The notes under the pieces are model-generated. The model did not search any database, had not been told where the DNA came from, and saw only the letters and a list, made by a program, of their open reading frames with translations. DNA of 64,000 nucleotides from Pochonia chlamydosporia 170 (Eukaryota; Ascomycota; Sordariomycetes; Hypocreales; Clavicipitaceae). Below, one piece after another: positions 27,474 to 61,341 of the stretch (position 1 is its first letter; each line of letters opens with the position of its first letter). The stretch is from assembly GCF_001653235.2 (NCBI RefSeq), contig NC_035795.1, positions 3,107,001-3,171,000 of the forward strand. The letters are read 5' to 3'. Both the position numbers and the translations under genes were made by a program.

Positions 27474-29836
27474 ATGCGTCTTGATTTTCTTGTAGCCGCT
27501 TTGCCCCTGACTCGTGCAGTAGCTCGAGGTCTGCCGGTCAAGAGTGTCAAGACTTCTGATCCTAAATCGGACGGGCCACCTTACGCCCTGCAAGATGATG
27601 GGCCGTCTTATAATCCTGAGGGTGATGGCCCACGCCGGATACCCAGGGGTATGAAGGCTGTGCTAGGCAGGACAACCAACACCGAGTCCCTGGCTGCTCC
27701 AAAACAGACGGCCGCCTCTACCCCCCCCCAGCCACCAACAGCTTCAAAGTAACTATTCTGGCAGATTCCAATCGTGATGGCAAGGTAGACATAACGGGCG
27801 ACACCGACCTCGCAGGCAAAGAAAAGTGGACAGAAGAGTCCGGCGCACTCTTTCTGGCCAATATTGTCGATACAGACCGTCGATGCTCATCCCAGATTAC
27901 TGGTCCATGCGCGGATAAGCTAGCCGACATTTTCTTCCTTGGAACGACATTACCAGAGAAGCCAGTCCTAGACCCAAGAATCGAACAGAGTATGTCACTG
28001 TTGGATACCAAGGGCTGGTTCGATAAACTAAGCGAAAGTGATAAGGCTACATACTACTGAGTGGGAGAAGAAGCTGACGGAATATACCAAGGCCTATGGG
28101 GAGCTGCGCGGTGTAGACAAGCGAATATCTTTCTGCCATGATGCCTCTGATGATATTCTACGCAACTCAAACTATCTTGCGCCTCTTCGAACCGTGTCAA
28201 ATCCCGAGCTTAGCGATTCGGCTACAGGTTCAATTATCGTGGCTAACGAGGCCGCCGCCTCGAACGTCCGCCTCTTTCATAAGACTGGCGGGCAATGGAC
28301 TTTTGTCGGGCGAAACTATACGTTCAAAGCCCAGGATCTCAAGGCTGGTCTGGAACTTGGCATTGACGGGCGTGATGTTCGTCGTCCGGGAGGATGGGAT
28401 GGTAGAGCGACAGTCGAGGTCAGGGTAAAGGACGGGGCGAGGGAGGCTAAAGACTCGGTAGTCCTTCGCGTTGCTCCCGTCTTGACACAACATCATGGTC
28501 AGCCCGCCAAGCAACTACTAACAGCAACCGGTTACGGAGGTGGTGGCCAGCAGCGTTTTATGGAGGAGCTCAGAGGCATTTCTAGCAAAGCGGGATTGAA
28601 CACGTCCCTCCATATATTCGAGACTTCTAACTGCAATCAGCCGGATGAGATTTGGGCCCAAGATTTTTTTGAGCCCGGCTACATGAGCATCCCCGGATCT
28701 GATGGTCCTATCAGCATACACATTTATGATACGGTCGGCGCAAGACTACCGTAGTGCCGGGCGCAAGGTTTTCCAAGACCTGAGATCTGATACAGTAGGG
28801 GCTGTCCAGCATCTAGCTGCTGGTAATACTACTGACTCGACGGGAAATTTGGAGACGGTGCCCCCTTATACACAAAACGGCAAATCGTATGCTGCGGGGC
28901 GGGCTGTGATGGGTTCATCGGGTGCGAAGCCTCACATGATGGCCTTCTTGGAGGCCCAGGAAACGCAAGCTCCGATTGAGCTCGACACCTCGTGGCTTGC
29001 CGTCCAGCATACGGACGAGTTTCATGCAGTTTCTCCCCGTTGAAAGCGAGCACGGCTGGGTCATGATGGTGGATGACCCGCGTGCGGGCCTCGAGATGCT
29101 CCGAAAGGCTCAGCAGGCCGGCCATGGCCAGGAAATGGCTGTCTCCCGTCCCAAGTCGCCGACTGATGGACCGGAATGGCGTGTGACTAATACCATAGAC
29201 GACCTGCTAAACATCACCAACTTCGCCGGCTTCCAAGAATCCTGCGCAAAAGGTACTGAGGAAAATGTCAACATTATGAAACGAGAAACAGGTATTACCG
29301 ATGCAGAAATTATTCGCATTCCTTCTCTTTATGAAGATTACCCTGAAAATTCTTGGAAATATGCGAACGATAAGCCTGTCGCCCAGGGAAAGCGCGAAGA
29401 GCCCGTTACTTAGATTCGGACTTCCGGCGACGAGAACCAACGCCGCCAGATCTACGATCAGGCCCGCGCCCAGAAACCCAAGGGGCTCAATGCTCTCGAA
29501 GCCGGCACACCTCCCCGGGACTTGAAGCACCAGCCAGAAGATGCAGCAGCAAGGAGTTTGGAGGGCCGCCAGGAAGCAGACAGAGGTGCTGTCACCCTCT
29601 ACCCTGGCGCTATCAACAGCGTTGTTCTGGGCAACAAGCAGATCGTTGCCCCTAACCCATGGGGACCGATAATCGAGGGTCAAGATGTGCTTGCCACCGC
29701 GGTAAATGCGGCCTACGCCAAGGCTGGTTATACCGTTGTCTATGTGGATGACTGGTTTACGCACCATGCAACGCTCGGCGAAGTCCATTGCGGGTCGAAT
29801 GTCATTCGTGAACTTACGGATGTCAAGTGGTGGTAA
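27474..29836 (+). pseudogene. Peptidylarginine deiminase (PAD), full-length but disrupted
   Basis: PADs convert protein arginine to citrulline in a calcium-dependent reaction. The N-terminus looks secreted (MRLDFLVAALPLTRAVARG). The middle domain shows TILADSNRDGKVDITGDTD, then WTEESGALFLANI. The catalytic domain has the active-site Asp in PDEIWAQDFFEPGYM, the His/Asp pair in LAVQHTDEF and the Cys in GEVHCGSNV, ending KWW as in vertebrate PADs. Blocks are in order, but the frame changes at a C9 run (about 27721-27729), near 28716-28730 (ATTTATG, one extra T) and near 29020-29030 (GAGTTTCATG, one extra T). A fourth change around 27990-28060 may be a 43-bp intron (27990-28032) or another frameshift. 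An in-frame TAG lies at 29411-29413 (CAG to TAG). Probably a recent pseudogene; homopolymer sequencing errors could explain the indels but hardly the stop. Confidence 0.8.
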
Positions 29837-40586: not shown

Positions 40587-42049
40587 CACACTGCCGCATC
40601 AAGCTGCTTGGTAGCAGGAGACTGGAAGCTAGACTAAAATCTCATATTTCCACGCCAATAGAAGGTCTGGTGCCACCTAAGTTAACCCAGTGGAGGGAAA
40701 AGGGCCTCCCAGACTCCCAGACAGCTGCAGTAATCGCGCCTGGGTCTTGTAGGAGGTGCAACATTCCTGTACCCAATTTATTACTCTCTGGTACGTACGT
40801 ATAGATGCAATCAAGCCCAGGCAAGGTGTGAACCAAAAACACACAAGTAGTCTCATTGGAAAGCGTAGAGCTCCCCCAAATGGAACAGTAAAGAAAGAGA
40901 AAGGGTAATCATCCTTGGGAGGAAAGGAGAAAGACATCCCTGGGATTTAGATTCACATCTACATAAATTTACATCGTTTTGCCGCTCATCATTACACTAC
41001 AGCACACGTAATGCCCCCAACTGTCAAGTAATTCCTCCAACTTCCCACTCTAATCTGTGTACCGCGCTTCTAACCTGTTTGCAACCCTTTAGAATGCCTT
41101 CATTCTACAGTTAGTGCACATGTAGCCTGACACTCAAATGTAACTGGATCCATTTCCATCATCCCAATCGCGATCCATCGCTACAATAGCAACGTAAACG
41201 CATCTTCCCAATTTTAGCGGACTGTTAGTATTAAATTCCATCTTGAAAGACTTACTGAGTACTTGAAAGCTTAAACCCAACATTAAGGTTAAGCTCGACG
41301 TTTAAAGCTGTTGAGTTTCCACACACATCCTGCATCCCAATACTGTCCTGCTCAGGGGTCAGGTGGCAGTAATTAGCAATGCATTAACCCTCCAGTTCTC
41401 TCCAGTGATAGTTACATGACGATTCTGGTCGTACCAAGCAGTTAACGGGGACGCCGTTGCTGCATTAATCACATTATAGGCGCTAGTTTGGAAAGTTTAC
41501 AAGATAGTTTACGAAACTTTCTGAGTGCTTAGGCTTAAACCCAATATTACAGATCAGCGTTAAGCTCAACGTTAAGCTCAACATACAAGCTAGATTGCGT
41601 TCGTATCCACTGGAATTTACCAAGTCCTGTCCCCAATTAGGTGTTAAGCGTCCGAAATTTGCCACGCTTCGCTCCTGTTCTCCCCGTGCCGTGATATTTA
41701 CGTCATGTTGAGTCGTAAGAGGTTATTCGGATTCCGTCGCATTAATAATTTTACGCGCCAATAAGATGTTCCTGCCCTGACCCTGTGTAAACAACCATGG
41801 TATCGTACCAGTGCATCCCCATCACATAACTGCCATGCAGACAGAGCACAACCTAACAACGCTTTGCGCAAAACACATTCATACGCATTATAATGTGCGC
41901 AATAGCAACAATCAAAAAGGATATTGCGAATCAGTCTTGCACATAACGTCTGTTGAGGGCAGTTGTCGCAGCCACCCGGATGTGACGAACCCACCAGAGA
42001 AATCCTCGCATGTAGCCAACACATACGCACATCAACAAAAAAGAATGAT
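40587..42049. other. Gene-free region with old repeats
   Basis: No supported coding sequence. 41255-41590 holds two related copies of a short repeat (listed). The rest has short frames only. Confidence 0.5.
41255..41590 (+). repeat. Two-copy diverged direct repeat, 266-bp spacing
   Basis: CTGAGTACTTGAAAGCTTAA near 41255 and CTGAGTGCTTAGGCTTAA at 41521 begin related blocks. Both continue with ACCCAAYATTA and GTTAAGCTCRACGTT and then a CCAATACTGTCCTG / CCAAGTCCTGTCC-like stretch. The second copy carries an extra internal GTTAAGCTCAAC duplication. No coding content. Confidence 0.5.
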
Positions 42050-42147
42050 GACCGGGACAGGAATTGAACCTGCTACCTTCTGACCACTGAGAATACTATA
42101 ATGATGCTTGTGTGTAGTCAGACGCTCTACCACTGAGCTACCCAGCC
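42050..42147 (-). tRNA. tRNA-like gene with intron, copy 1 (anticodon loop CT-ACA)
   Basis: On the minus strand the 5' end GGCTGGG pairs with CCCGGTC at the 3' end, including two G-U pairs. The D-arm/A-box is GTAGCTCAGTGGTAGAGC, the anticodon stem TCTGA/TCAGA pairs perfectly, and the T-arm/B-box is GCAGGTTCAATTCCTGT. About 25 nt of extra sequence sits after position 37, where tRNA introns occur. The anticodon reads ACA (Cys with A34), which is highly unusual and suggests a mutated copy of a GCA tRNA. The 5' flank has TTATAAAG about 40 bp upstream, shared with the other copies. Confidence 0.6.
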
Positions 42148-42234
42148 TTTGTTTGTTGGGGTACATAGTACTAAACCACTTTATAACCCTTTATCCCACC
42201 ACCCTCACATGCAAACTGGCAAAACAAGAATAAT
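42148..42234. other. Conserved 5' flank of tRNA-like copy 1
   Basis: In tRNA orientation it contains TTATAAAGTGGTTTAGTACT followed by ATGTACC and CAACAAACAAA. Close relatives lie upstream of copies 2, 3 and 4, so the transcription unit extends beyond the tRNA body. Confidence 0.5.
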
Positions 42235-42332
42235 GGCCAAGACAGGAATCGAACCTGCTACCTTCTGACTACTAAGAATACTGTAAAGATGCTTGTTTGT
42301 AGTCAGACGCTCTACCGCTGAGCTACCCGGCC
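42235..42332 (-). tRNA. tRNA-like gene with intron, copy 2 (anticodon loop CT-ACA)
   Basis: The minus strand begins GGCCGGG and ends CTTGGCC, a seven-pair acceptor stem with two G-U pairs. The A-box is TAGCTCAGCGGTAGAGC, the anticodon stem TCTGA/TCAGA, the T-arm GCAGGTTCGATTCCTGT. The intron-like insert is about 25 nt and similar to copy 1. Copy 2 lies 185 bp from copy 1 in the same orientation, a local duplication. Anticodon by position is ACA. Confidence 0.6.
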
Positions 42333-43198
42333 TTTGTTTGTTGTGGTATATAGGACTAAACTACCTTATATGCCTTCATCCAAAGAAGCAGCAAGTCAGT
42401 AAATCCACCTAGTTGATCACCCAAGACGCGGCTTCAATTCGACACACGAATACTGGCCTGTCCTTTCTGCATTTACCACAAGGGCCTTGCAACTTGTCAC
42501 GCTGGGTATGTAAAAATTGCATGATACAGGCAAGTTGATTCCTGAGCTCTACGGTGGACCATGGATGAGTGCTTTGAGGATTGTCCAAAGGCTTCCATGA
42601 TTATCCAAAGAATTACGTGGCTGCCCAAACCTTCTATGGTTATCTGAAAGTTTCCGTGGCCATCTAAAAGTTTCCATGACTATCCAAAGAATTCCGCTCC
42701 AGCCGGCAGTCCCCTTTTCTTGCTTATAGTGGTTTTGTTTTCGTAATTAGAAACTCAGCCGACACAGACAAAACTTGCAGACGCCCGGGCACACAGCACA
42801 CGGCGGGAGCCAAGACGATCCCACCATCATTCCCAGCACGCAGCCAAGCAAGTTTAAAAGTCGCAATGAGATGGCCACACGTTTCGTATGCTGTAGATAC
42901 CAGGTTTTACTTCCTAAACGCAACAAAGCTTCTCGAACCGCCCAGCTTGGCGACTGCTCTGCTCCGTCATGAAACAGATTCACACAGAAAGCTTGCTCCC
43001 GGCCCCTATTCTTTGGCTGTCGGTCTCAGAAGCAGCAACGCGACATTCCCAGGCGATAAAGGCGTTAAAAAGACAGCATTGGCCTGGGGGACTAGGTTTC
43101 AGTGCTGGCATCGTATACCAGTTGGATGGGTGGTGGCGACGTTGAGAATTCGCCTCAAAACTGGACCACGGTAAAAAGACAATGCATCGACAAAAAGG
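42333..43198. other. Spacer between tRNA-like copies
   Basis: Holds the 20-bp tandem array (42581-42700). Otherwise only short unsupported frames. Confidence 0.45.
42581..42700 (+). repeat. 20-bp tandem repeat, six units
   Basis: Six consecutive units in exact 20-bp register (42581, 42601, 42621, 42641, 42661, 42681) share a core TATCCAAAGAATTCCATGGC-like pattern, for example TTATCCAAAGAATTACGTGG. Units differ by several bases but never in length. Since 20 is not a multiple of three, it is not a protein repeat. Confidence 0.75.
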
Positions 43199-43294
43199 TA
43201 ACCGGGACAGGGATCGAACTTGCATCTCCTGACTGCTAAAGATACTATAGTAATACTTGCAGCCAGACGCTCTACCAGTTGAACTACCCAGTTA
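43199..43294 (-). tRNA. tRNA-Cys(GCA)-like gene with intron, copy 3
   Basis: The minus strand starts TAACTGG and ends CCGGTTA (seven pairs, one wobble). The D-arm is GTTCAACTGGTAGAGC, the anticodon stem TCTGG/TCAGG, the T-arm GCAAGTTCGATCCCTGT. C32-T33-G34-C35-A36-A37 gives anticodon GCA (Cys), followed by an insert of about 25 nt. This copy keeps the expected Cys anticodon where the others read ACA. Upstream TTTATAAGGCCGTTTAGTAC matches the flanks of the other copies. Confidence 0.6.
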
Positions 43295-43559
43295 TTAGGT
43301 ATGGTACTAAACGGCCTTATAAACCTCCACCCCATCACCAACACCCTCACCCTCACCATCACAACAAGCTGCGCCGCGGGTATTTTGTCTTACTATGCTC
43401 GCTTGTCAAATAAAAAAAGTAACAGGCTTTCTTTGTCTGATTTACTTGTGCTTGGTAATAGTTTAGATCTCTGAGAGCTTGCACTACCAAATACCTGGGG
43501 CAGAGGAACACAACACATGCAAAGATAACAGACCAGTATAAAATCGGAATCACGACGGA

Positions 43560-45650
43560 CCCAGTTTCCTTTCTTAAAAGAGTTCCTAAGTTGTGGCTGA
43601 TTTAACCTAAGCAGTTCCTAAGCCTTAGTAAGTTACTCTAAGTAGCCTCTAAGCTGCTAGAGCTACCCTAAGTATCTCCTAGAGTTTTCTTAAGCTACTT
43701 GCTATTAATAATATTATTATACTCTCTTTAACGTGAGTGCATAACGAGTGGGCTAACATAACGAGTAGGCTACTTAATACTACCTTCTCGCAAAGATTCT
43801 ACAAAAAAATAACTATAACATAGAAAACCAATTAATCTTTACTATAATCCTCTTTATTAGATATTTCTATATTAATCTAATAAGTATAACGTGAGTGCAT
43901 AGTGAGTGCCACAGCATAGCAAGTGCCACACTCGCACTCTCACCTAAAATACTAGTTTTATATCCCTGTAAAAAATTCGCTCTAATGTCTAGTGTCGGTC
44001 TGTAGATGTTACCGGGCTGTTAGAGTCGCTCTGAATCTAATAAAACAAGCTGGGCAGCCGGTTTAAGCTTGCAAGTAAATACGGTAGTTATTTAGTAGGC
44101 GGCATTTAGAATAGTAGTGCACCTAATACGAGATTCTTTATTTAATCTAGGGACAAAAAGCGGTTGCTTGTCTTTAATTAGCCACCTATAAAGCATTTCT
44201 TGTGACTTTTAATACTTATAGAGTGGCTTACATATTACTCTAAAGGCTTTTTTGTCCTTTTATACTTCAAACTCAGTTAACAGTAGGGCTATAGGCCTGT
44301 ATTCCGCACTTATGCCCTTATTAGGAAAGCAGGGTTTATATCCGCCTACTGCTAAAGACACCTGTTACCTTTTTGGGTATATATTGCCTGCAATTTGCAG
44401 TTCTGGCGAACTGCTATCTCCTAATATAAGCATACCTGTTAATGTTTGTATAATATTACCTATAACGCTTTATAGTATACTATAACCTATACTCTTTGTT
44501 GTTTTACAGTTATAAGCTTATGTGGGACACAGCGGCTAGGAATAAATCTTATTGCCTATGCACTAGTTGGTATTAAGGAGCTTAATTGTACCTGTCTTAA
44601 ATAATGTATAGACTGTCTACCCAAACGTAGCGGATGCTAAGCCTAACGGCAAGCCTTATAAGGTCTCTAATTGTCTCTAGGAGCAATATGTTTATATTAT
44701 TGTACCAAAAACTTCCTAGCTTTATTAGCTTGTTAAGATTAAAGAGAGTGGTTTTATCGTCTTAACCTAGCCCCACACATAGCTTAGAGCTATGTATATA
44801 TCTTCCAGGGAGCTATACGCAAGATACTACTTCTTAACGTGAACTAGGATAAAATCGCAAGGAAATGTACTTAACTCCCTAGCCGCCTTAAAGACGTAAC
44901 TTGAGCAACTGGACATGTCTTATATTCCATTTAAATATCTGTGACATAGTGTTCTTAGATACTTTGGTATGCTGTGTGAAGTTATTTCTATTAAAACGAC
45001 TTTCAAGATCATCTAATATGGCGCTATTAATTAGTTTATTAAAATTGTTAAATATTTTAAGGCTATATGACTGTTAAGACATTAGGATCTCTGATTTAGC
45101 TGGGGTAATACTATTTAACTCACGCAAGTACACCTTATTCGTCACTTGCCCCGCGGAATGTCCCGCATGCATGTATCCCCGCTTTAGGCGGCTGCATGAG
45201 CTCTTAAGCTTTGGATTGTATGAAACCGGCTTGTCAGAGGGCACGTCCTTGATCAAGTACACATCTGGTTTGTAAGAAATTGGCTACGCCCACCCGGATA
45301 CTCAGTCACAGCAAGTGAGGCGCTTAGTTCTTATAAGCGTGTTATCATATCCCACTTTATCCTCTGGAAAAAATGTGTCAAGACCAAGGATAATATAATG
45401 TATTCCCCCTACTAAAGTGTTGATATAAAACTACTTGGTGAATATCTTCCGGCTACAATTCCATGACCTAGCCTTGGGTTCTTGCCAACGAGAGTCAGAA
45501 GCCCTAGAAAATGCAAGTGTCGTAAAAAGCAACAGCTTCGAGGCAACTCTATATAACCAGTTGACGAAATTCCCCTATAGATAGCTTCAATCAAGGAACA
45601 AGTCCGCAGCACAATCGATTCATATGGTGTCAACCCTCACAGATGTACTG
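43560..45650. mobile_element. TA-rich decayed repeat/transposon island
   Basis: About 2 kb of TA-rich, stop-rich sequence with no usable frame. Features: a CCTAAG-rich stretch at 43575-43690; the adjacent direct repeat CATAACGAGTGGGCTAA / CATAACGAGTAGGCTAC near 43741-43775; and AACGTGAGTGCAT recurring at about 43729 and 43888. Composition fits a RIP-mutated element. I cannot name its class or ends. Confidence 0.4.
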
Positions 45651-45816
45651 TGAAGACCACCGCTGAACCAAGCTTTGGCTTTAACCACGGGATGTAGCGC
45701 TGTCATGATCCCACTGAATGAGCGTCTTGTCCTAATTTTCTCTATCAGCTTTATTGCATTGTATGGGTAACATTGTGCTCTCCGGCTCATCGTCCTTTTA
45801 TTCCTGCAATACTCAC

Positions 45817-47562
45817 TTAGTGATAGAGATCTCCATGATCTCGCTTAATCGCATCAGCGCCCTTCTCGGCAACCATGTAAACCGAATTCTGAATTCTGCA
45901 GTCCGGAATGACAGGAATAACAGACGCATCAATAACCCGAAGATTCTTCACACCATGAACCTTGAGGTTCGGATCCACTACACCCTGCTGGATACTCTTA
46001 GACAAACGAGCAGTACCACAGGGATGGAAAGACGTTTGGCAACGATCTAGAACAGTCCTCTTCATAGCCTCGTCATCATGAAGTGGCATCTCCCAAGGAT
46101 ATTCGTCCTCAACAATATCCTTAAATCCCTCGCCATTTTTAAGAACGTCATAGGAGAACCTAATGCCTTCTCGTACAGCAATAATATCCAAGTCGTTATT
46201 AAAATAGTTCAGATTGATATTAGCCTGCTGCAGAGGATCAGCGCTGTTCAGTGTCACCTCGCCCCCCTCAGAGACCGGCCGAACAAGATCCACCATAACA
46301 GTCATATAGCTACCCTTTCCAGGATGTGGAAAGTGCCACTGGAACGCACTGCCAAAGAGGGGGATAAAGTCGAGTTCGAAATGAGGTTGACCATAAGGGC
46401 AAAATGGGTCTTTGCCCCCATTTGCATTCTTTGCCTTGCGATATTCGGGTGACTTCTCCAAGTATTTATCGATGCGAGGAAACCCGATCATCTCGAGGAA
46501 AGGGGACCCCATTGGTCCAGCGTGACGACCTTTAGAATAAGCGGACAAGACTTGGTCCTGCAAAGGACCTTTCCGCAAGACGTGATTGTCCATGGAGAAA
46601 CTATCCTTGATTCGGAGGCAAAACGGAACACCTGGATGGTCCAATAGATGTTGGCCGACATGACGAGAATCAACCAATAGAGGGATGTTATGCTTGGCTA
46701 GCTCGGGTGCAGGTCCTATACCACTAAGCATTAAGAGCTTGGGGGTTTCGAAAACACCTTCCGAGACAATGACCTCGCGCGTAGCATAGAAGCTGAGTTC
46801 TTGTCCAGATGCGCTAATCACAGTTACACCCTTGGCAGTGCGGTCGGCGTCATCAATGATGAGAGTCTTGGAGTGAACGTGAGGCAAGATTGTAATGTTG
46901 GTCTTGTTTGCGACGGCGAGGAAGCTACCAGATCGACGACCCTTGTATATGGTATTGACGCTGTGGACCAGACCACGCATCTCCCCATCGAAGATGTTTT
47001 CCGAGACTGGTTCCCCTGTAGATTTCCATGCTTTAACGAGAAGATCCCGGAAAGGTGCCATTTCAGGCATTAGCTCCGCATGTGCAATTGGAATAGGGCC
47101 ACCGAGGCCAATCTTCTTCAACTCCTTAGGGTACAGGCCAGCATCGTCATGATAGGTAGCACTCTTTCGAAGGTAGGGAACAAGAGGGCCCCAAGTCCAT
47201 TCCTTACCACCATATTCCTCCCACATGTCAAAGGTGCCTTTGGATCCTGGAACCCATGAAAAATAGTTCAATGAAGAGCTACCGCCGAGAGCTTTTCCGC
47301 GAGTGTTGGGCTTCTCAATACGTTCATAGTCGTCCCGCTTGACCATGGTTGTCTTGTACGCCCAGTCGTACTCGCTGCCTCGGATTTCCATTGCCAACCC
47401 GGGGGTGCGAATTTCTTCATTTTCAATGGAGTTGCCTATGCCAGCTTCGACTACTAGGATTCTTGCATTCGGATTTTCGGCCAGACGAGCAGCAACAATG
47501 TTACCGGCCGTCCCACCGCCAACGACGATGAAGTCAAAACGTGAACCGTCTTTGACAGACAT
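45817..47562 (-). CDS. GMC oxidoreductase (FAD-dependent alcohol oxidase/dehydrogenase)
   Basis: 581-aa single-exon flavoenzyme of the glucose-methanol-choline family, oxidising an unknown alcohol. The ADP-binding motif DFIVVGGGTAGNIVAARL is at residues 10-27. GMC signature 1 is RGKALGGSSSLNYFSWVPG, signature 2 is GVFETPKLLMLSGIGP. The catalytic His is in TSFHPCGTARL, and the second active-site position is occupied by Asn in CRIQNSVYMVAEKGAD. There is no signal peptide, so an intracellular enzyme is expected, unlike secreted aryl-alcohol oxidases. It is the only intact gene between 38 and 49 kb; flanks are repeat-rich. Substrate cannot be inferred. Start at 47562 gives the standard N-terminus. 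Confidence 0.85.
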   Translation of the reverse strand: MSVKDGSRFDFIVVGGGTAGNIVAARLAENPNARILVVEAGIGNSIENEEIRTPGLAMEIRGSEYDWAYKTTMVKRDDYERIEKPNTRGKALGGSSSLNYFSWVPGSKGTFDMWEEYGGKEWTWGPLVPYLRKSATYHDDAGLYPKELKKIGLGGPIPIAHAELMPEMAPFRDLLVKAWKSTGEPVSENIFDGEMRGLVHSVNTIYKGRRSGSFLAVANKTNITILPHVHSKTLIIDDADRTAKGVTVISASGQELSFYATREVIVSEGVFETPKLLMLSGIGPAPELAKHNIPLLVDSRHVGQHLLDHPGVPFCLRIKDSFSMDNHVLRKGPLQDQVLSAYSKGRHAGPMGSPFLEMIGFPRIDKYLEKSPEYRKAKNANGGKDPFCPYGQPHFELDFIPLFGSAFQWHFPHPGKGSYMTVMVDLVRPVSEGGEVTLNSADPLQQANINLNYFNNDLDIIAVREGIRFSYDVLKNGEGFKDIVEDEYPWEMPLHDDEAMKRTVLDRCQTSFHPCGTARLSKSIQQGVVDPNLKVHGVKNLRVIDASVIPVIPDCRIQNSVYMVAEKGADAIKRDHGDLYH

Positions 47563-53089: not shown

Positions 53090-54520
53090 GTCCGTGGTCA
53101 GGTATATCAAGTTTAAAATGATGCAAGGAGTGTGACAGCAGCATGATGATTGTGTTTCGATGAAGAGGAGGGGAAGTTTGACGAGAGTCCTGACTCCTGA
53201 TGATGTTGGTCAGAGCAGGCATCAAGGTGGGGTTGTCTGCTCAACAATCCACCCGGGCGGCTCCGGTAGCGGGTCCAAAAGTATTGGCGTAGTTCGCGAC
53301 TTCTCGAAAACCTTGCTCGAACTGAGTTATAGATATCGGCAACATCTTTTACCGTACTTGAGATATTCTTGCCAGTTGCAGAATACGACTCAATTCTCTA
53401 GGTCATCAACCACCAAACAAGGTCAAAGACCTGAGACTTGGAGCCAAAGAGAACCAAATAGACCAACGCACGGAGAAGGTAGCGCAGCAGTCTATCCAAG
53501 CTGCCTACCCTAGTGTCTGTCCCGATCTTTATCAAATGAGTTTTCTACTTGCTCGGTGGAGGCGACACACTTTCCTGGTGGAATGGTCTGATGGTACATG
53601 TGCGCCGCAGAGTTTGGCCGGGTAGGAGGTGGGAGTACATGAGAATTGCCTTCAACGCCAAAATGAGGTAGAAGGGGGATTACGTTGCCCGAGCTCTGCC
53701 AGCGACTTGGCTTACAATCTGTACGTTTTATGCAGCGTGTTACCTATTAATAATTCAGAAGCTCTTCTATTGTCCACTCGTTTTACAGTTAATATATGGA
53801 TCCACAATCCGAATAGTTGCTCTTGTTCACGCGGTAGAATTATAAGCGATGCGCATGTCTTCAGTAAGATACGGTTAACACTAAAGATCCTGAGTGCGGC
53901 GATGTTGTGAATACCGACACTTAAGCGCCGTGGCGTATTGCCCTTGACAATTTATTGGACCACAGTACAGTAAAGCCAGTGAGCATCCCGCTGCCATCGA
54001 ATGTGATGGGAAAAGTACATGTAACCACCGAGTTTGGCTGACCTCATATCCCTTTCACCATTCGCTGTGCAAAATGAGGCGAGCACAGGCTGCATGCTAA
54101 CTACTAGGTACCCAGGTACCTTTCAGCTATCCTCCCTCATTGTCGACTTGTTTGGATTTGGTCCTCTTTGCACCTTCCTGCTCTCTCTTACCTACCAGAC
54201 CCACAGCCTGCCGTTACTTTTTTGGACCTCTGATCTACCAGCTTCGTTTACTTTCACGTCTTAACGCCCATACGCTCTCTGCGGCACTTGGGCGCTGTCT
54301 GACAACCAGAGACCTGGGCTATTTCGTGAGTGAGGTTATATCGAACATCCAACTGTACACGACACGGTTCGGACAAATTGGCCACTCTTGCCTGGTGCCC
54401 AGGGACATGCTGGCACTCTGGCAGCGGAAGAAAGGGTCCTATTATTAAGCTCTTCTGCTACCATTTATTGTGATTTGAGGGCACCAGGATAGCTTCCACA
54501 AAGGCCATTAATACTCCAAT
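53090..54520. other. Gene-free spacer
   Basis: About 1.4 kb with short frames on both strands and no domains. 53750-53900 is mildly TA-rich. It ends at the NLR pseudogene. Confidence 0.45.
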
Positions 54521-57500
54521 ATGACAAGATTTCGCCCTGAATACTATACGGTAGGATGGCTTTGTGCTCTCCCGGTCGAGCTTAACGCAGCAACAAAAAT
54601 GCTTAATAAACAGCATCACAGCCTTCCTCAAAAGCCAGATCATCCAAACTTGTACACGCTTGGCCAAATCAATACCCACAATGTTATTATCGCCTGTCTG
54701 CCTGCTAGCCAGACCGGTACCAGTTCGGCCGCAGGGGTTGTGAGCCAGATAAAATGCGTATTTCCATCAATACAGCACATATTCATAGTTAGTATTAGAG
54801 GCGTCGTTCCAGGCGATAATGCAGCTATACAACTTAGGGATGTGGTGGTTAGCCAGCCGCACATGGGACATAGCGGTATAGTCCAATATGACTTCGGGAA
54901 GAGCACGCCCAGCAGATTCATCTGTACTGGATTTATTAACGCACTACCTACCATCCTTTTAAGTGCCGTTAACAAGCTGCAAGCAAATCATCTTAAGCAC
55001 CAAGCTAATATTTTAAAGATCCTCTCCACGCTAATCTGCCTTCGTAACAAAGCTAGTCCCAATATCCTATTTAAGCCAACTTACATGCATGTTAGAGGAG
55101 CTAAATGTGATATATGTGATAAAGATATAGTAATGCATCGGACACCGCGAGACAGCAATAATATTGAAATCCACTATAGCACTATAGCTTCTAGCAATCA
55201 GCTTATACAAAACGGAGCAACTAGAGACTCGCTTAGCTTAGAGTTTGGTAGAGTGCTTTGCTTCAAGATAGAAGCGGCTGGGTTTATAAGCGTATTTCCC
55301 GGCCTTATCATTCAAGGCATCTGCGACTACGCAGACTCGCACAAGAATAAGAAATAGCAACCGTACACGGCAGCAACGGCAGCAGTAGTAGCAAAGGAAA
55401 TCCTCTCAATTCTACCCACGGCACAGCTCGCCGTGACTAAAGAAACGGATTTAGAACTGGACAGCCCGGTCCGATTCTTAGCCCTTTCAAAAAGACCAGA
55501 ATGGCAACTAGCCCAAGAAGGTATCCTCAACGCTATTACCCCAAAGAAAGAGTATTCCGGTTCGGCTGATATGTAGAGATTAGTGCCTTTACCCTGTAAT
55601 ATCTTTGAAAATATTTCCGACTATGAACCCACCTACACCTACCGCAGTTACATGCGCAATAGGTGCCTAGGAACTGCAACGTGGGTGCTACGCGACAAAG
55701 AATTCTTAGCGTGGAAAGAGGAAACCCGCTTATGTCTGTGGCTGTCCGGTAAAAGTATGCGTCCTTGTTTCTGCCAGTCTATTAGTCACATGCTTATCAC
55801 TGTACTCCAGTTGGTTCTGGAAAGACTCTTATGACGTATGTTGTCCCAGTTTGTTGCCCTAAGTTTGTCAAAGTGTTAATATTACCTAGGACTACCGTTA
55901 TAGAGTACATGATAGAGGCGTCTTAAAATGGGGGTGATTTTGTGGCCCACTTCTTCTACAGTCACTCGAATAAATCCCAGCTTAAAGCCGCTTATCTGTT
56001 TAAAAGCTACATTAAATAAATGCTTAGTTTTATTGATCTGATCGGAAAGGCGTGCCCTTGGGTGCTAGTGGAAGCGGTAAAACAATTCTACGGCCCAAAA
56101 ACGTGCCGTCCTAGCTTCAAAGAGATCATAGACAGTATATTTATACCGTTGGGCAAATTCCTAAATTAGCTTGTTCTAAGCGCAATATATATTGTGAATG
56201 GTCTTGATGAGTGTGAGCTAGTCGAGAGACAACTGGTCCTTAGAACTTTTAGAGGGATAATGTAACAGCTTGACCTGCAAAGGGTTTTAATCTCTGGACG
56301 GGATGACCTCCATGTGAGGGACTTCATAACAGATTCCACGACTCTGCGTATGTCGAAAGAGGACAATAAGGAAGACATCCGACGGTTTATTGAGTGGAAG
56401 CTCAAGGAAAAAATGTTGGAAAGACAGCTCACAGAAAATAAGTGCGTCCTTTAGGACATTAAGAGCAAACTCAATGAAAGAGCTGATCTTATGTTAGTTG
56501 CCGCCCTACAGCAAAGCGAGTTTGTTCCTATACTAATATTCCACAAGGCTCTTATGGGTGAGTATGCAAATAGAAACTCTATAGGATGTGTGCTCTACGG
56601 ATAACAACATTTAAAATGCCCTCGATAACCTACTGAAGAGTCTAGACGAGACTTACGCCTGCTGCCTAGCGCGAATAGATAAGCAATAAAGTCGGTTTGC
56701 CCCAGCTATCTTGCGCTAGGTATCTGCAGCAATTAAGCCGTTTTAAGCCAATTAACTTAGGGAGGCACTTGCAATTAACCCTAGCACCGGATGCCTTAAT
56801 AGGGGTCAAATGCCAACAACTTAAGAGATTGTAAAATGCTGCTCTAACCTTATTACTTTAAATATTGGTTAAATCCTCCTCGCGCACTACTCCGTGCGCT
56901 AATTCTTAGAAATACAAGTCCCTGACGGCCAAGTCTTAGCCGCGCCGTTTAAGCTAGACAATGCGCAACTAGAACTCGGCTAGCTCTGCGTGAGCCATCT
57001 AACATCCCCTAACTACAGGCTTGCCTTGCAGTCCAAAAATATAGGTGAATGCTTGCAAATTGCAATGAGTACTACAACCATAAAGACACTGATTGAGGCA
57101 CTATTGCCATCCTAGACTCACCGCTTCCTGAGAAAGCCTAAACCTGCTACTATGGTCCTGCCTAGTAGAGGTTTAAAACCTCCTTCAGCCACGGAGCTAC
57201 CGTCCATCTTCCAGTATGCGAAAAGCCAGTGGGCACCACTTACGCGAAGTATAACTGAGGACTCCCCACACTGGGCCAAGTTCCGCGCGCTCGCACTCGA
57301 ACCAAATTTGTCATGGCGATTGCATCCTTGGACACCTCTAGGGGAGTCTCTTGATTCTCACTACTCTGGGTTATTAGGATGGGCCATAGTACATCGTCAT
57401 GCCCCTCTCCTAGATCTTTTGTTCAGCTTGCATGACCGTAAGCCCAACAATAACATTTTTAACGTACCATTCTATTACTACAATAATCTTCCAGCCCTAC

Positions 57501-58348
57501 ACTTGGCGTCAAGAAACGGTGATATTGAGATTGTAAAACGGCTGCTTCAAGTGTGCAATCTCAAAAAGTTAGATAATAATCATCGAACAGGTCTTCATCA
57601 CGCGGCGGAGACAGGTCATTCAGATATTGTTTTGCTACTGCTCCAAAGAAGAGTGAACTCGAAAGCCCAAGATAACAGAGGGCAAACGGCTCTGCATCTT
57701 ACGGCAGCAAATGGACACGACAGAGCGGTACAAGCACTAATCGCGGTACAAGCACTAATCGATCAAGGCGCGGACGTCGACCAGAAGGATAATATGAGAC
57801 AGACGGCGCTTTTTCTGGCAGCGAGAAACGGGCACGAGGGCGTGGTCAAGCTGCTGCTCGACAGGGGCGCCAATATCGAGGCCAAGGACAACATCGGTCG
57901 GACGCCGCTGTATTGGGCCGCCAGGAACGGGCATGAGGCCGTAGCCAAGCTCCTGCTCGACAACGGCGCCAATATCGAGGCCAAGGACAACATCGGTCGG
58001 ACGCCGCTGTGGTGGGCCGCCCTGAACAGGCACGAAGCCGTTGTCCAGCTGCTGCTTGACAAGGGCGCCGACATTGAGGCCAAGGACAAGAAGGGTCAGA
58101 CGCCTCTGCTCTGTGGTGGGCCACCCGGAATGGGCACGGGGCCGTCGTCAAGATGCTGCGATAATATTTCTGATAATGGCGAGGCGGCGGGTGGGCCGTA
58201 TGAAGCGCGGGTAACGCAGGACAGTTCGCAATCGCAATGGCATTTAAAGGAGACGGAGATGAAACGTCTGGATGACGTAGGGAAGTTCCTAAAGGATCTT
58301 CGAGAAGCAGTAGAGACTGCTGAATCTGGAAAGCAAACCATTCAGTAA
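54521..58348 (+). pseudogene. NOD-like receptor (PNP_UDP-NACHT-ankyrin), RIP-mutated
   Basis: Fungal NLRs take part in non-self recognition and programmed cell death. 54521-55357 encodes a phosphorylase-superfamily sensor domain (YTVGWLCALPVEL, YTLGQINTHNVIIACLP, VVVSQPHMGHSGIVQYDFGK). A TAG replaces the conserved Trp in KKWQPYAAATAA at 55355-55357. The frame then continues through more stops: PTYTYRSYMRNRCLGTATW, LCLWLSGKS at the P-loop, where the GKT is destroyed, then IYIVNGLDEC (Walker B, about 56187-56216), LISGRDDLHVRDF and SLDETYACCLARID. From 57152 a clean 398-codon frame carries six ankyrin repeats (33-residue units such as NGHEAVAKLLLDNGANIEAKD); the seventh is shifted by a 5-bp duplication at 58104-58113. 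The domain order is full length, but the NACHT is dead. Confidence 0.8.
57725..57760 (+). repeat. 18-bp in-frame tandem duplication inside an ankyrin repeat
   Basis: GCGGTACAAGCACTAATC occurs twice in immediate succession (57725-57742, 57743-57760). It duplicates AVQALI in the helix of the third ankyrin repeat and breaks the 33-residue register of that unit. Confidence 0.9.
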
Positions 58349-59088
58349 GCTCAAGGCTCTCCGTGATTTTTGCGGTCACGCAGCTAGCGATTTTGGTGGT
58401 GGTGGTGAATCTGCATTGGCAGCTTTAGCCATTAACTGAGCTTGTGACATTGCCAGACTGACTGCTTACAACTGTGATACTCTCTCCACCACCTATATAT
58501 TAAGGCTTAATGCGACGGATGGCGCTTGTAGTGCCGTTGGTTGATGTGGTTCAACAGCAAAACGCAGACTTGCGTCTATTACTGCGGCGGAGATGGTGCC
58601 CTACGAAGAATAGAAACGAGGCGTGTTCAGGATTAACTGATGTGGAGCGTGGGAAGCTATATTGGAACAGCTCCCGATGGAAGTCAATCATTCGAACTAT
58701 TGAAGGGGGTATGGAAGGGCGCGAGTTTCAAAGTAAACTGTTTGCTTGACAATGTTCCAGAATATTGCAATCTCGCGCAATCACGCCGAGACTTGTGGGC
58801 CTTATTCTCTCTGATCGGCATACATGTTTTAAAAGATTTCCTATTCATTTAAATGACTAGAAAATAGGCTTGGATAAACACTGCAGTTAGGTTTATAAAT
58901 CAATATGTGCTACCTGTATTCGATTGTTCTAGCACCCATTTCCACTGTTTTTGCCGCAAATGTCTAAGCAACTAATCGAACATCTAACACAAAGATATGG
59001 GTTACTAGGACTGCAATAGACTTTGTAGCAGGAAGAGAAACCGTTTAGATAACAGCCGGGCACAAATAACCAGCAGCGCCATAGCTAA
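58349..59088. other. Spacer between NLR and PKS remnants
   Basis: Short frames only; nothing recognised. Confidence 0.45.
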
Positions 59089-60180
59089 CTTTCATCTAGG
59101 CCAGATGAGCGCATTGCTCGTATTCATGGATTTCCTTCCTTTATTTCCCTCATTAGCGGAGATGATACTAAGTCAGGCGATCCTCCCCCTATCGCGGTTC
59201 AACTAGCCATCCTGTGTTTTAAGATGGCCGCAGCTGAACTCTGGTTATCCTGGGGAGTAAAGCCAGGTGTTGTTCTTGGCCACTCCTTACAAGAATATGC
59301 GGCGTTGTATGCTTCTGGTATATTGTCAGCAAGCGATATAATATATCTCGTTGGTGAGCGAGCGCGTCTCGTTTCGGAAAGCTGCACTCCTGACACCCAC
59401 GCCATGTTGGCGGTTCAGGCCCCGGCAGGCTTGGTTATGCCAGTTCTGGAGAAATTTAATGTTGAGATGACCTGTCTGAACAGTCCAAAAGAGGTAGTTC
59501 TTGGTGGTCTCTCCGTTGAGATATCTAGAGCTGCGGAACAACGAAGGGCGGATGGCATCGCCTGCACCAAGCTCCAAGTTCCATTTGCCTTCCACTCCAG
59601 CCAAATAGACCCGATCCTGGATAACCTCGAAAGGGTTGCCCAGTCGATCAATTTTTTCCCGCCAGAGATTCCATTCATATTCTCACTACTAGGAAAACCA
59701 GTTCAAGCCGATGAGGTTGGGCCAACGTATATCCGTCGTCATGCTCGCGAACCGGTGAGGTTTGCCGATGCAACACTCTCGGCACAAAAGATGGCAGAGG
59801 TTGATGACAAGGTGCTCTGGTTAGAAGTCGGACCGCACGCCATCTGTACCAACATGATGAAGGCAACCATTGGCGCTAGCACGATCGCAATTCCAACAGC
59901 TCGCCGTAAGGAGTCAATACGCAGGGTTCTTGGTCATGCTATGAGTGTTTTGCATTGTTGCGGCATAAACTTGGACTGGAACGAGTTTCACCGGGACTTT
60001 TCAAGGTCAACAGCGCTGGTCAACCTCCCCTCGTACTCGTTCGAGCAAAAGAACCACTGGATTCAGTACCAGGGCGATTGGACACTGTCAAGGAAAAAAA
60101 AGCTCGACTGCCACCGCCATAGTGCCCAAGAAGACGCTATCAACTACGGCAGTGCACTCGGGGTTCAAGACGGTGTTTGA
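59089..60180 (+). pseudogene. Orphan acyltransferase (MAT) fragment of a non-reducing polyketide synthase
   Basis: The malonyl-CoA:ACP transacylase domain of NR-PKSs loads extender units. The frame opens at 59089 after a stop and runs RIHGFPSFISLISGDD, PPPIAVQLAILC, then the nucleophile elbow GHSLQEYAALYASG, in which the Ser is kept but the usual Gly (GHSLGEY) is Gln. PFAFHSSQIDPILD supplies the catalytic His. It continues to LPSYSFEQKNHWIQYQGDW, the conserved lead-in to the product-template domain, then ends at 60180. No ketosynthase precedes it, and no PT, ACP or TE follows in any frame. The ATG at 59224 is inside the domain. This is a piece of a lost or translocated PKS gene; expression as a free transacylase is unlikely. 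Confidence 0.75.
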
Positions 60181-60870
60181 GAAGCCAGTTTTCGCACCAT
60201 TCTTCCTTTGCGAGTATTGAAAATTGGCAACCGGTTCGGAATTGGTTACATGAGTATGTAACTGTAGGTCGACCAGATTTGCCAATGGTTGAACGTCTGA
60301 TAATAAACACAAAGCCTCGAGCTGCTGCCCATATATTGATATCTACCAATAGGGCTGCTTGCGATACATACCATCGCTGGAGCGGAAGGCTATTGTGAGG
60401 GCATAAAGCCGGATTAGAATCCATTGCTTTGTGCTGGTGGTTGTGGTGGCGGGGTTACAGGCGGTCATCGCTGAGGTGCTAATAATTACAGCGGAGCTGC
60501 TGACCAAGAATAGGGACCCGTCCCTCTATGAGGCGCCCGATATTGAACCCACATTCCAAGTACTAACCCATTGCCCAACCCCGATCTAACGCCTCGTCTT
60601 CCGGGACGGGCCGTAGTGGTGGGTTAGGTGGGAAAACAGTCGATTTTGGTGAATTGCTCTCGGCGCGAGTAAGCACAAAATTAGGGACATTATGCACAAT
60701 AGGCCTTAATATTAAGCCCTAATATTATTAGGTTTCTCTAGGGCAATACTCTGGTTAAGGCATTAAACTAAACGCAATATGCAAATAAGTAATAGACTAG
60801 ACATTTAAACTATAGCTAGAAATTTCTAAAACTAAAGACCGGGTTTCACCTTACAGCAGATTTTAGTGTA
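60181..60870. other. Spacer, TA-rich at its 3' part
   Basis: Nothing recognised. 60660-60870 becomes TA-rich, like the adjacent ankyrin relic. Confidence 0.45.
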
Positions 60871-61125
60871 GTGGAAGTCTTTATAGAGTTAGTTAGAAAC
60901 GGAATTAAAATAGACAAAAAGGATAGAGGCGGCCGGATGCCCCTTAGCTATGCTGCTGGCAATAGCTATAATGCTATAGCGCAGTATTTTCTTGCCACAA
61001 GCCAGGTTAATGCTAACTCTAAAAATAAATACAGTTAGATGCTGCTTAGCTATACTGCTAAGAATAGTCATAATGCTATAGTATAGCGTCTTCTTGCTAT
61101 AGGTAAGGTGGATGCTAACTTAAAA
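60871..61125 (+). pseudogene. Ankyrin-repeat relic, RIP-mutated
   Basis: The frame from 60871 reads two to three ankyrin units: GRMPLSYAAGNSYNAIAQYF, then LATSQVNANSKNKYS-stop, then MLLSYTAKNSHNAIV-stop, and RLLAIGKVDANLKN. The ancestor was evidently of the TPLSYAAENGHEAIVQLLL / GKVDADSKDKYG type common in fungal NLRs. It differs in type from the ankyrin units at 57.5-58.1 kb, so it is probably a separate gene's remnant. Confidence 0.65.
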
Positions 61126-61144
61126 AATAACTCCAAAAAAATAA

Positions 61145-61242
61145 TAACCGGGACAGGACTTAAACCTGCATCTCCTAACTACCAAGAATGTTATAATAAT
61201 ACTTGTTGTAGCCAGACGCGCTACCATTAAACTACCCGGTTA
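61145..61242 (-). tRNA. tRNA-like gene with intron, copy 4 (degenerate)
   Basis: The minus-strand acceptor TAACCGG pairs perfectly with CCGGTTA. The A-box is TAGTTTAATGGTAGCGC and the T-arm GCAGGTTTAAGTCCTGT. The anticodon stem TCTGG/TTAGG is weak, and the loop reads CT-ACA-A. The insert of about 25 nt is related to those of the other three copies. TATATAAAGTGGTTTAACAC lies upstream. The weak stem and G-to-A/C-to-T type differences suggest a RIP-mutated pseudogene. Confidence 0.5.
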
Positions 61243-61341
61243 ATAGCTATAGTGTTAAACCACTTTATATACCCTTCACCAGACGTTCAATGTAAATCTA
61301 CTTGATATTTATTCTAGCAACGCTGTAATGTACACGCACCT

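What the first reader, a model, noticed from the sequence alone, without database searches (positions are those of the whole stretch)
27474..29836. Peptidylarginine deiminase in a fungus, full length but broken, with every catalytic residue preserved
Seen: PAD blocks in the correct order across frame changes, with Asp (WAQD), His and Asp (QHTDEF) and Cys (VHCGSN) retained, the KWW terminus and a signal-like N-terminus. Lesions: a C9 run, two single extra T bases, a possible fourth break and a CAG-to-TAG stop. Known: citrullinating PADs are best described in vertebrates, with homologues in cyanobacteria and some fungi. Inference: a secreted fungal citrullinating enzyme lost only recently here, probably still active in sister strains.
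Basis: partly seen in the sequence, partly recalled or inferred. Interest (0 to 1): 0.8.

Follow-up and report, generated by a model that had tools for sequence, protein, structure and literature searches.

The report
Recently broken fungal citrullinating-enzyme gene copy
In a fungus that parasitises nematode eggs, one copy of a protein-citrullinating enzyme gene appears to have been broken very recently, but the same genome keeps three intact copies, so this is ordinary gene-family turnover rather than loss of the enzyme.

Summary
Window 27474-29836 encodes a full-length fungal protein-arginine deiminase (PAD, PF03068) in six pieces, split by four frame changes and one in-frame TAG; the catalytic Asp, His, Asp and Cys and the KWW end are present. 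The genome is Pochonia chlamydosporia 170, a nematode-egg parasite.

(1) The genome has three other PAD genes, each one uninterrupted 615-639 aa frame, plus a short PAD remnant. One copy was lost, not PAD. (2) Public annotation already calls this locus 'peptidylarginine deiminase', a 371-aa spliced model that ends before the His, second Asp and Cys. (3) The break looks very young: 0 of 77 family-invariant columns and 1 of 191 near-clade-invariant columns are changed, no worse than in relatives.

The copy belongs to a long PAD subfamily seen in Metarhizium and Cordycipitaceae (best about 73% identity). Three protein searches listed no near-identical intact copy. Local assembly error is unlikely but not excluded. 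Verdict: a recent pseudogene in a known, expanded family; low interest.

The parts
27474..27728 (+). Piece 1: start codon, signal-like N-terminus, DDGP..YNP-type repeat linker
   Evidence: tblastn to P0097 residues 1-109; translation
27721..27729 (+). Break 1: run of nine C where the frame changes
27725..28054 (+). Piece 2: first part of the N-terminal domain (ILADSNRDGKVD) and the subfamily's extra linker
   Evidence: P0097 residues 108-219, 76% identity; no Pfam hit of its own
28054..28059 (+). Break 2: frame change, no room for an intron between the flanking homology blocks
   Evidence: P0097 residues 219 and 221 flank it
28059..28724 (+). Piece 3: rest of the N-terminal domain and start of the catalytic domain; catalytic Asp (WAQD) at 28662-28664
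   Evidence: P0097 residues 221-443, 73% identity; Pfam PAD 1.8e-15 for the open frame holding it
28724..28726 (+). Break 3: frame change inside the catalytic domain; the public 371-aa model runs into a stop at 28752-28754
28726..29022 (+). Piece 4: catalytic domain with His 29008-29010 and Asp 29014-29016
   Evidence: Pfam PAD 7.6e-26 for the open frame
29020..29024 (+). Break 4: frame change directly after HTDEF
29021..29410 (+). Piece 5: catalytic domain continued
   Evidence: Pfam PAD 1.1e-23 for the open frame
29411..29413 (+). In-frame TAG stop in a variable linker
29414..29836 (+). Piece 6: C-terminal catalytic part with Cys 29789-29791, KWW end and TAA
   Evidence: Pfam PAD 4.8e-31
27649..27764 (+). 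Stretch treated as intron 1 (GTATGA..GGCAG) in the public 371-aa model; it removes conserved coding sequence (ILA)
   Evidence: P0149 mapped by tblastn, exact ends worked out by eye and printed; I25 L26 A27 invariant
27990..28038 (+). Stretch treated as intron 2 (GTATGT..AAAG, 49 nt) in the public model; relatives align to it as coding sequence
   Evidence: ends worked out by eye

Best explanation
A recently disabled paralogue of the fungal protein-arginine deiminase family (PF03068) in Pochonia chlamydosporia 170. The ancestral copy was a roughly 790-residue PAD of the long subfamily found in Metarhizium and Cordycipitaceae, with a signal-like N-terminus, a proline-rich repeat linker and a PAD; when intact it would have converted peptidyl-arginine to citrulline, probably outside the cell (inferred from the family). 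Four frame changes and a stop now prevent a full-length product. The genome keeps three intact PAD genes, so selection on this copy was presumably relaxed by redundancy (inferred). Shown: homology, breaks, conserved residues, intact paralogues, near-zero conserved-site decay. Inferred: secretion, activity of relatives, cause of loss.
For: Collinear full-length homology over the pieces; five disabling lesions; three intact paralogues of 615, 626 and 639 aa and a 3' remnant on C5; 0 of 77 columns invariant in 27 relatives and 1 of 191 columns invariant in 20 near relatives are changed, against 0-11 in 20 leave-one-out controls; branch lengths of pieces 3 and 6 within the range of relatives in single-piece trees; under a simple neutral model about 1.2% substitutions or fewer fit; assembly from ~210x Illumina plus ~32x long reads with Pilon and manual correction (PMC5773674, passages); about 14.0 kb of uninterrupted frames in five window genes and the three paralogues, where the locus's lesion density would predict about 30 lesions; an intact paralogue models as a PAD fold (mean pLDDT 86, best PDB match human PADI4, E 2e-45).
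Against: Four frameshifts with almost no conserved-site change is a high indel-to-substitution ratio, which is also what local assembly error would give. The public annotation keeps the locus as a gene, and transcript evidence was not available. No second strain could be examined. The open frames used as an accuracy control were chosen because they are open.
Confidence: 0.86

Rival explanations
1. The gene is intact in strain 170 and the frame changes are local assembly errors.
For: Conserved residues are as well kept as in relatives, and one break is in a C9 run.
Against: Assembly used ~210x Illumina with Pilon and manual correction (passages); breaks 2-4 are not in long homopolymers; an in-frame TAG is also present; the three paralogues and five other window frames are uninterrupted.
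Confidence: 0.09
2. A live, shortened gene: the public 371-aa spliced model (P0149) is really made, giving a secreted protein without catalytic His, second Asp and Cys, perhaps a decoy or regulator of the intact PADs.
For: The model exists in public annotation; stretch 27990-28038 has a GTATGT start, a CTAA motif and an AG end.
Against: Both 'introns' cover sequence that is coding in relatives, the first removing invariant ILA; the product ends in frame-shifted residues before most of the active site; pieces 4-6 would then have no reason to stay conserved, yet they are, although a very recent change would leave them so too.
Confidence: 0.04
3. An old pseudogene or RIP-mutated duplicate.
For: It is broken and the genome holds paralogues; TpA/ApT at the locus (0.74) is somewhat above that of the intact paralogues (0.52-0.62) and (CpA+TpG)/(ApC+GpT) somewhat below (1.24 against 1.29-1.42).
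Against: Conserved-site decay is essentially zero; both indices lie inside the spread of the window's 32 two-kb bins (0.48-1.25 and 1.05-1.41); tblastn alignments to the C1 paralogue are 40-61% identical, too diverged for a recent duplicate of it.
Confidence: 0.01

Closest known systems
Fungal two-domain PAD/PADI (Pfam PF03068; PMC8826395 describes a second PADI type shared with actinobacteria)
   Same: Catalytic Asp, His, Asp, Cys; N-terminal ILADxNRDGxxD region plus catalytic domain; KWW end
   Different: This copy is split by four frame changes and a stop
Long PAD subfamily: Metarhizium acridum P0097, Akanthomyces muscarius P0121, Cordyceps javanica P0122, Beauveria mimosiformis P0123
   Same: 72.6-73.3% identity over 750-759 aligned columns; repeat linker and, by eye, an extra linker of 60-odd residues
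   Different: Those are annotated as single proteins of 810-948 aa; this one is not continuous
P0149, 371-aa 'peptidylarginine deiminase' of P. chlamydosporia 170
   Same: It is the public gene model of this very locus
   Different: The model joins pieces by two doubtful introns and stops in the catalytic domain
Human PAD1-PAD4
   Same: Homologous catalytic domain and active-site motifs, same fold for the intact paralogue
   Different: Animal PADs have three domains and a calcium-switch Asp that fungal ones lack (PMC8826395 passages; not tested here)

Membership tests
Protein-arginine deiminase (PF03068) | Match to the family profile above its cut-off | tested here: met
   4 of 5 open frames of the locus given to Pfam pass 25 bits on their own; the frame of piece 2 has no hit and piece 1 was not given
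Protein-arginine deiminase (PF03068) | Catalytic Asp, His, Asp, Cys | tested here: met
   All four present, spread over three frames
Protein-arginine deiminase (PF03068) | One continuous reading frame able to make the enzyme | tested here: not met
   Four frame changes and a TAG; it is a pseudogene of the family, not a working member
Protein-arginine deiminase (PF03068) | Calcium-dependent citrullinating activity | not testable with these tools
   Needs protein; activity of fungal homologues is stated in a passage of PMC8826395 citing El-Sayed 2019, which I did not read
Fungal two-domain PAD type | Lacks the separate animal PAD_N domain | tested here: inconclusive
   The C1 paralogue models as a PAD fold that Foldseek aligns along most of PADI4; domains were not counted separately; the two-domain type is taken from PMC8826395
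Long PAD subfamily | Repeat linker plus extra linker, closest identity to Metarhizium/Cordycipitaceae copies | tested here: met
   single-piece trees place it among them with weak support (0.28 for piece 3, 0.61 for piece 6)
RIP-inactivated gene | Raised TpA/ApT and lowered (CpA+TpG)/(ApC+GpT) | tested here: not met
   0.74 and 1.24, slightly shifted from the intact paralogues but inside the spread of the window's bins
Secreted protein | Working signal peptide | tested here: inconclusive
   Hydrophobic N-terminus, but the lowest peak hydropathy of 12 compared (1.82; others 1.98-2.73); no signal-peptide predictor was available

The most novel reading that the evidence does not exclude
The broken copy is still transcribed and spliced through coding sequence turned into introns (27649-27764, 27990-28038), yielding a 371-residue secreted, catalytically dead PAD that competes with or modulates the three intact PADs.
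Probability: 0.04. Interest if true: 0.5.

Novelty: new member of a known kind. Interest (0 to 1): 0.2.

Why it matters
It corrects a public gene model that names a working peptidylarginine deiminase where the locus is broken, and it shows a multi-copy PAD family with turnover in this nematode-egg parasite: three intact genes, one freshly broken copy and one remnant. If strain 123 turned out to hold an intact copy, the pair would be a natural contrast between nematode biotypes.

Tried and rejected
RIP as cause: not supported by dinucleotide indices. Introns explaining the breaks: rejected, since homology to P0097 is contiguous across breaks 1-4 to within one residue and the public model's introns cover coding sequence of relatives. 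Subtelomeric position: not shown; the last 9.3 kb of the contig hold no tandem TTAGGG, and the locus is about 87 kb from that end. Signal-peptide decay: Asp at position 4 also occurs in the relative P0126, and hydropathy is only slightly low, so inconclusive. Tree position: single-piece trees are weakly supported, so orthology to one named copy is not claimed. dN/dS: not possible, no orthologue DNA was available; replaced by conserved-column counts. Sister-strain copy: not listed in three protein searches, but I could not establish that strain 123 proteins are in that database. NCBIfam gave no family for P0001, P0149 or P0097. Literature: deiminase with Pochonia gave 2 papers, arginine deiminase with pseudogene and Hypocreales 0, deiminase with entomopathogenic fungi and citrullin 0, arginine deiminase with Metarhizium 4; the strain-170 and strain-123 genome papers (PMC5773674, PMC8817618) hold the word deiminase 0 times in their main text. 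No title or abstract start listed reports this pseudogene; supplements were not searched.

Full report
What it is. The window lies in a 44.2-Mb, 49-contig genome. The intact C1 paralogue is 100% identical to P0001, named protein-arginine deiminase of Pochonia chlamydosporia 170, on a contig of 8615222 bases like C1; P0149, 99% identical to one piece of this locus, is named peptidylarginine deiminase of the same strain, on a contig of 3224313 bases like the window's contig C6. The published assembly of that strain has 49 scaffolds and 44.2 Mb (PMC5773674, passages seen). So the organism is P. chlamydosporia 170, a nematode-egg parasite.

Observation. The PAD reading is right. Of five open frames given to Pfam, four match PAD above its cut-off; the frame of piece 2 has no hit, as expected because PF03068 covers the catalytic part (in the C1 paralogue it matches residues 187-615), and piece 1 was not given. 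P0097 aligns collinearly from its first to its last residue, with small overlaps at breaks 1 and 4. Breaks lie at the C9 run, 28054-28059, 28724-28726 and 29020-29024, with TAG at 29411-29413. The catalytic Asp sits in piece 3, His and Asp in piece 4 and Cys in piece 6, matched to human PAD1 through the C1 paralogue.

Whole genome. A PF03068 search of the genome finds seven matches: three lie in genes of one uninterrupted frame (C11, 639 aa; C1, 615 aa; C6 at 2834343, 626 aa), three are pieces of this locus, and one is a 58-codon 3' remnant on C5. A search with the 817-aa relative P0097 gives 16 matches at the same five places. The three intact paralogues are 32-38% identical to one another, so they are old duplicates or separate acquisitions. 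The claim that the fungus lost its citrullinating enzyme is therefore not supported; it lost one copy.

Public annotation. P0149 is 371 aa. By tblastn it matches 27474-27647, the piece-2 region and 28035-28751. Working out the joints by eye, it avoids the first two breaks by treating 27649-27764 and 27990-28038 as introns (ends printed). Relatives align to both stretches as coding sequence, and the first removes ILA, invariant in all 29 sequences of alignment A1. The model ends after break 3, without the active-site His, second Asp and Cys. Either way, the locus as assembled does not encode a complete PAD.

How recent. I aligned 24 long-subfamily proteins, chosen by hand from the 148, with the three intact paralogues, and added the six pieces as separate rows. 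Of 77 columns invariant in all 27, the pieces change 0. Of 191 columns invariant in 20 near relatives (four of the 24 left out: P0050, P0088, P0130, P0136), they change 1. When each of the 20 is left out in turn, it changes 0-11 of 191-202 such columns, mean 2.85. The highest, P0126 with 11, also lacks the simple Cys pattern, so it may not be an intact gene; the other 19 change 0-8. In trees of piece 3 alone and piece 6 alone (28 rows each) its terminal branch (0.24, 0.35) and root-to-tip length (1.24, 0.64) lie within the range of the other rows; the rooting of the piece-6 tree is arbitrary. A simple neutral simulation (786 codons, 192 of them at conserved columns) gives 0.166 conserved-column hits per substitution, so 30 substitutions (1.27%) would leave one hit or fewer with probability 0.04 and 20 (0.85%) with 0.16. 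Strains 170 and 123 are more than 96.45% identical over syntenic sequence (PMC5773674, passage), so the loss may be younger than their split; this is suggestive only.

Result against my reading. Four frameshifts with so few conserved-site changes is many indels for few substitutions. Fungal mutation spectra vary (recalled, not looked up), but local assembly error would look similar. Against error: coverage and polishing as published, breaks 2-4 outside long homopolymers, the separate TAG, and about 14.0 kb of uninterrupted frames in five window genes and three paralogues, where the same density would give about 30 lesions. Those frames were chosen because they are open, so this argues against genome-wide error, not against a local fault.

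Relatives. The closest are M. acridum, Akanthomyces muscarius, Cordyceps javanica and Beauveria mimosiformis proteins, at 72.6-73.3% over 750-759 columns. PADs are common in related fungi: 385 proteins matched the C1 paralogue and 372 matched P0097 at E <= 0.001, with 120 listed each time. Of 148 proteins from those lists, 143, 146 and 145 hold simple patterns for the Asp, His-Asp and Cys motifs, and 8 miss at least one. The search with one open piece, limited to short proteins, listed 17, among them other truncated PAD models; why they are short was not examined. Three 'arginine deiminases' were reported among genes unique to one Beauveria bassiana isolate (PMC5134283, passages; whether they are PADs was not checked), which would fit turnover. 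Peptidyl arginine deiminase-like enzymes were reported as down-regulated in mid-infection by P. chlamydosporia on Parascaris eggs (PMC12405259, one passage); the passage does not say which gene. The origin and two-domain type of fungal PADs are described in PMC8826395 (passages).

Function. An intact paralogue, P0001, models with mean pLDDT 86 from 29 sequences and matches human PADI4 best (E 2e-45, TM 0.74). The intact relatives very probably citrullinate protein arginine in a calcium-dependent way; that is inference from the family. The copy in the window probably makes no functional enzyme.

Verdict.

Noticed in passing
window 59089-60180: A polyketide-synthase acyltransferase piece (PF00698, 1.5e-33); by eye no other PKS-like frame stands among the 15 frames of 90 aa or more listed for 54000-61500, so it looks like a PKS remnant.
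   Followed up: partly
window 42001-46000: GC 0.40-0.44 and TpA/ApT 1.23-1.25, the most AT-rich and RIP-like stretch of the window.
   Followed up: no
L009 4464-4640 (contig C5 2065463-2065639): A 3' PAD remnant of about 58 codons, closest to the intact C6 paralogue (25 of 53 identical); apparently an older PAD relic.
   Followed up: partly
window 27540-27650 and relatives P0097, P0121, P0122, P0125: By eye, long-subfamily PADs carry a variable number of DDGPxYNPK-like nine-residue repeats after the signal-like start.
   Followed up: no
proteins P0097, P0121-P0123, P0102: The M. acridum long PAD is closer to Cordycipitaceae copies (71-74%) than to the M. robertsii copy (63%), which hints at paralogy or transfer between families.
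   Followed up: no
window 57116-58348 and 54512-55357: A clear ankyrin-repeat frame (Ank_2, 6e-78) 1.8 kb downstream of a frame that by eye resembles the nucleoside-phosphorylase-like start of a fungal NLR but has no Pfam hit at 1e-4.
   Followed up: no
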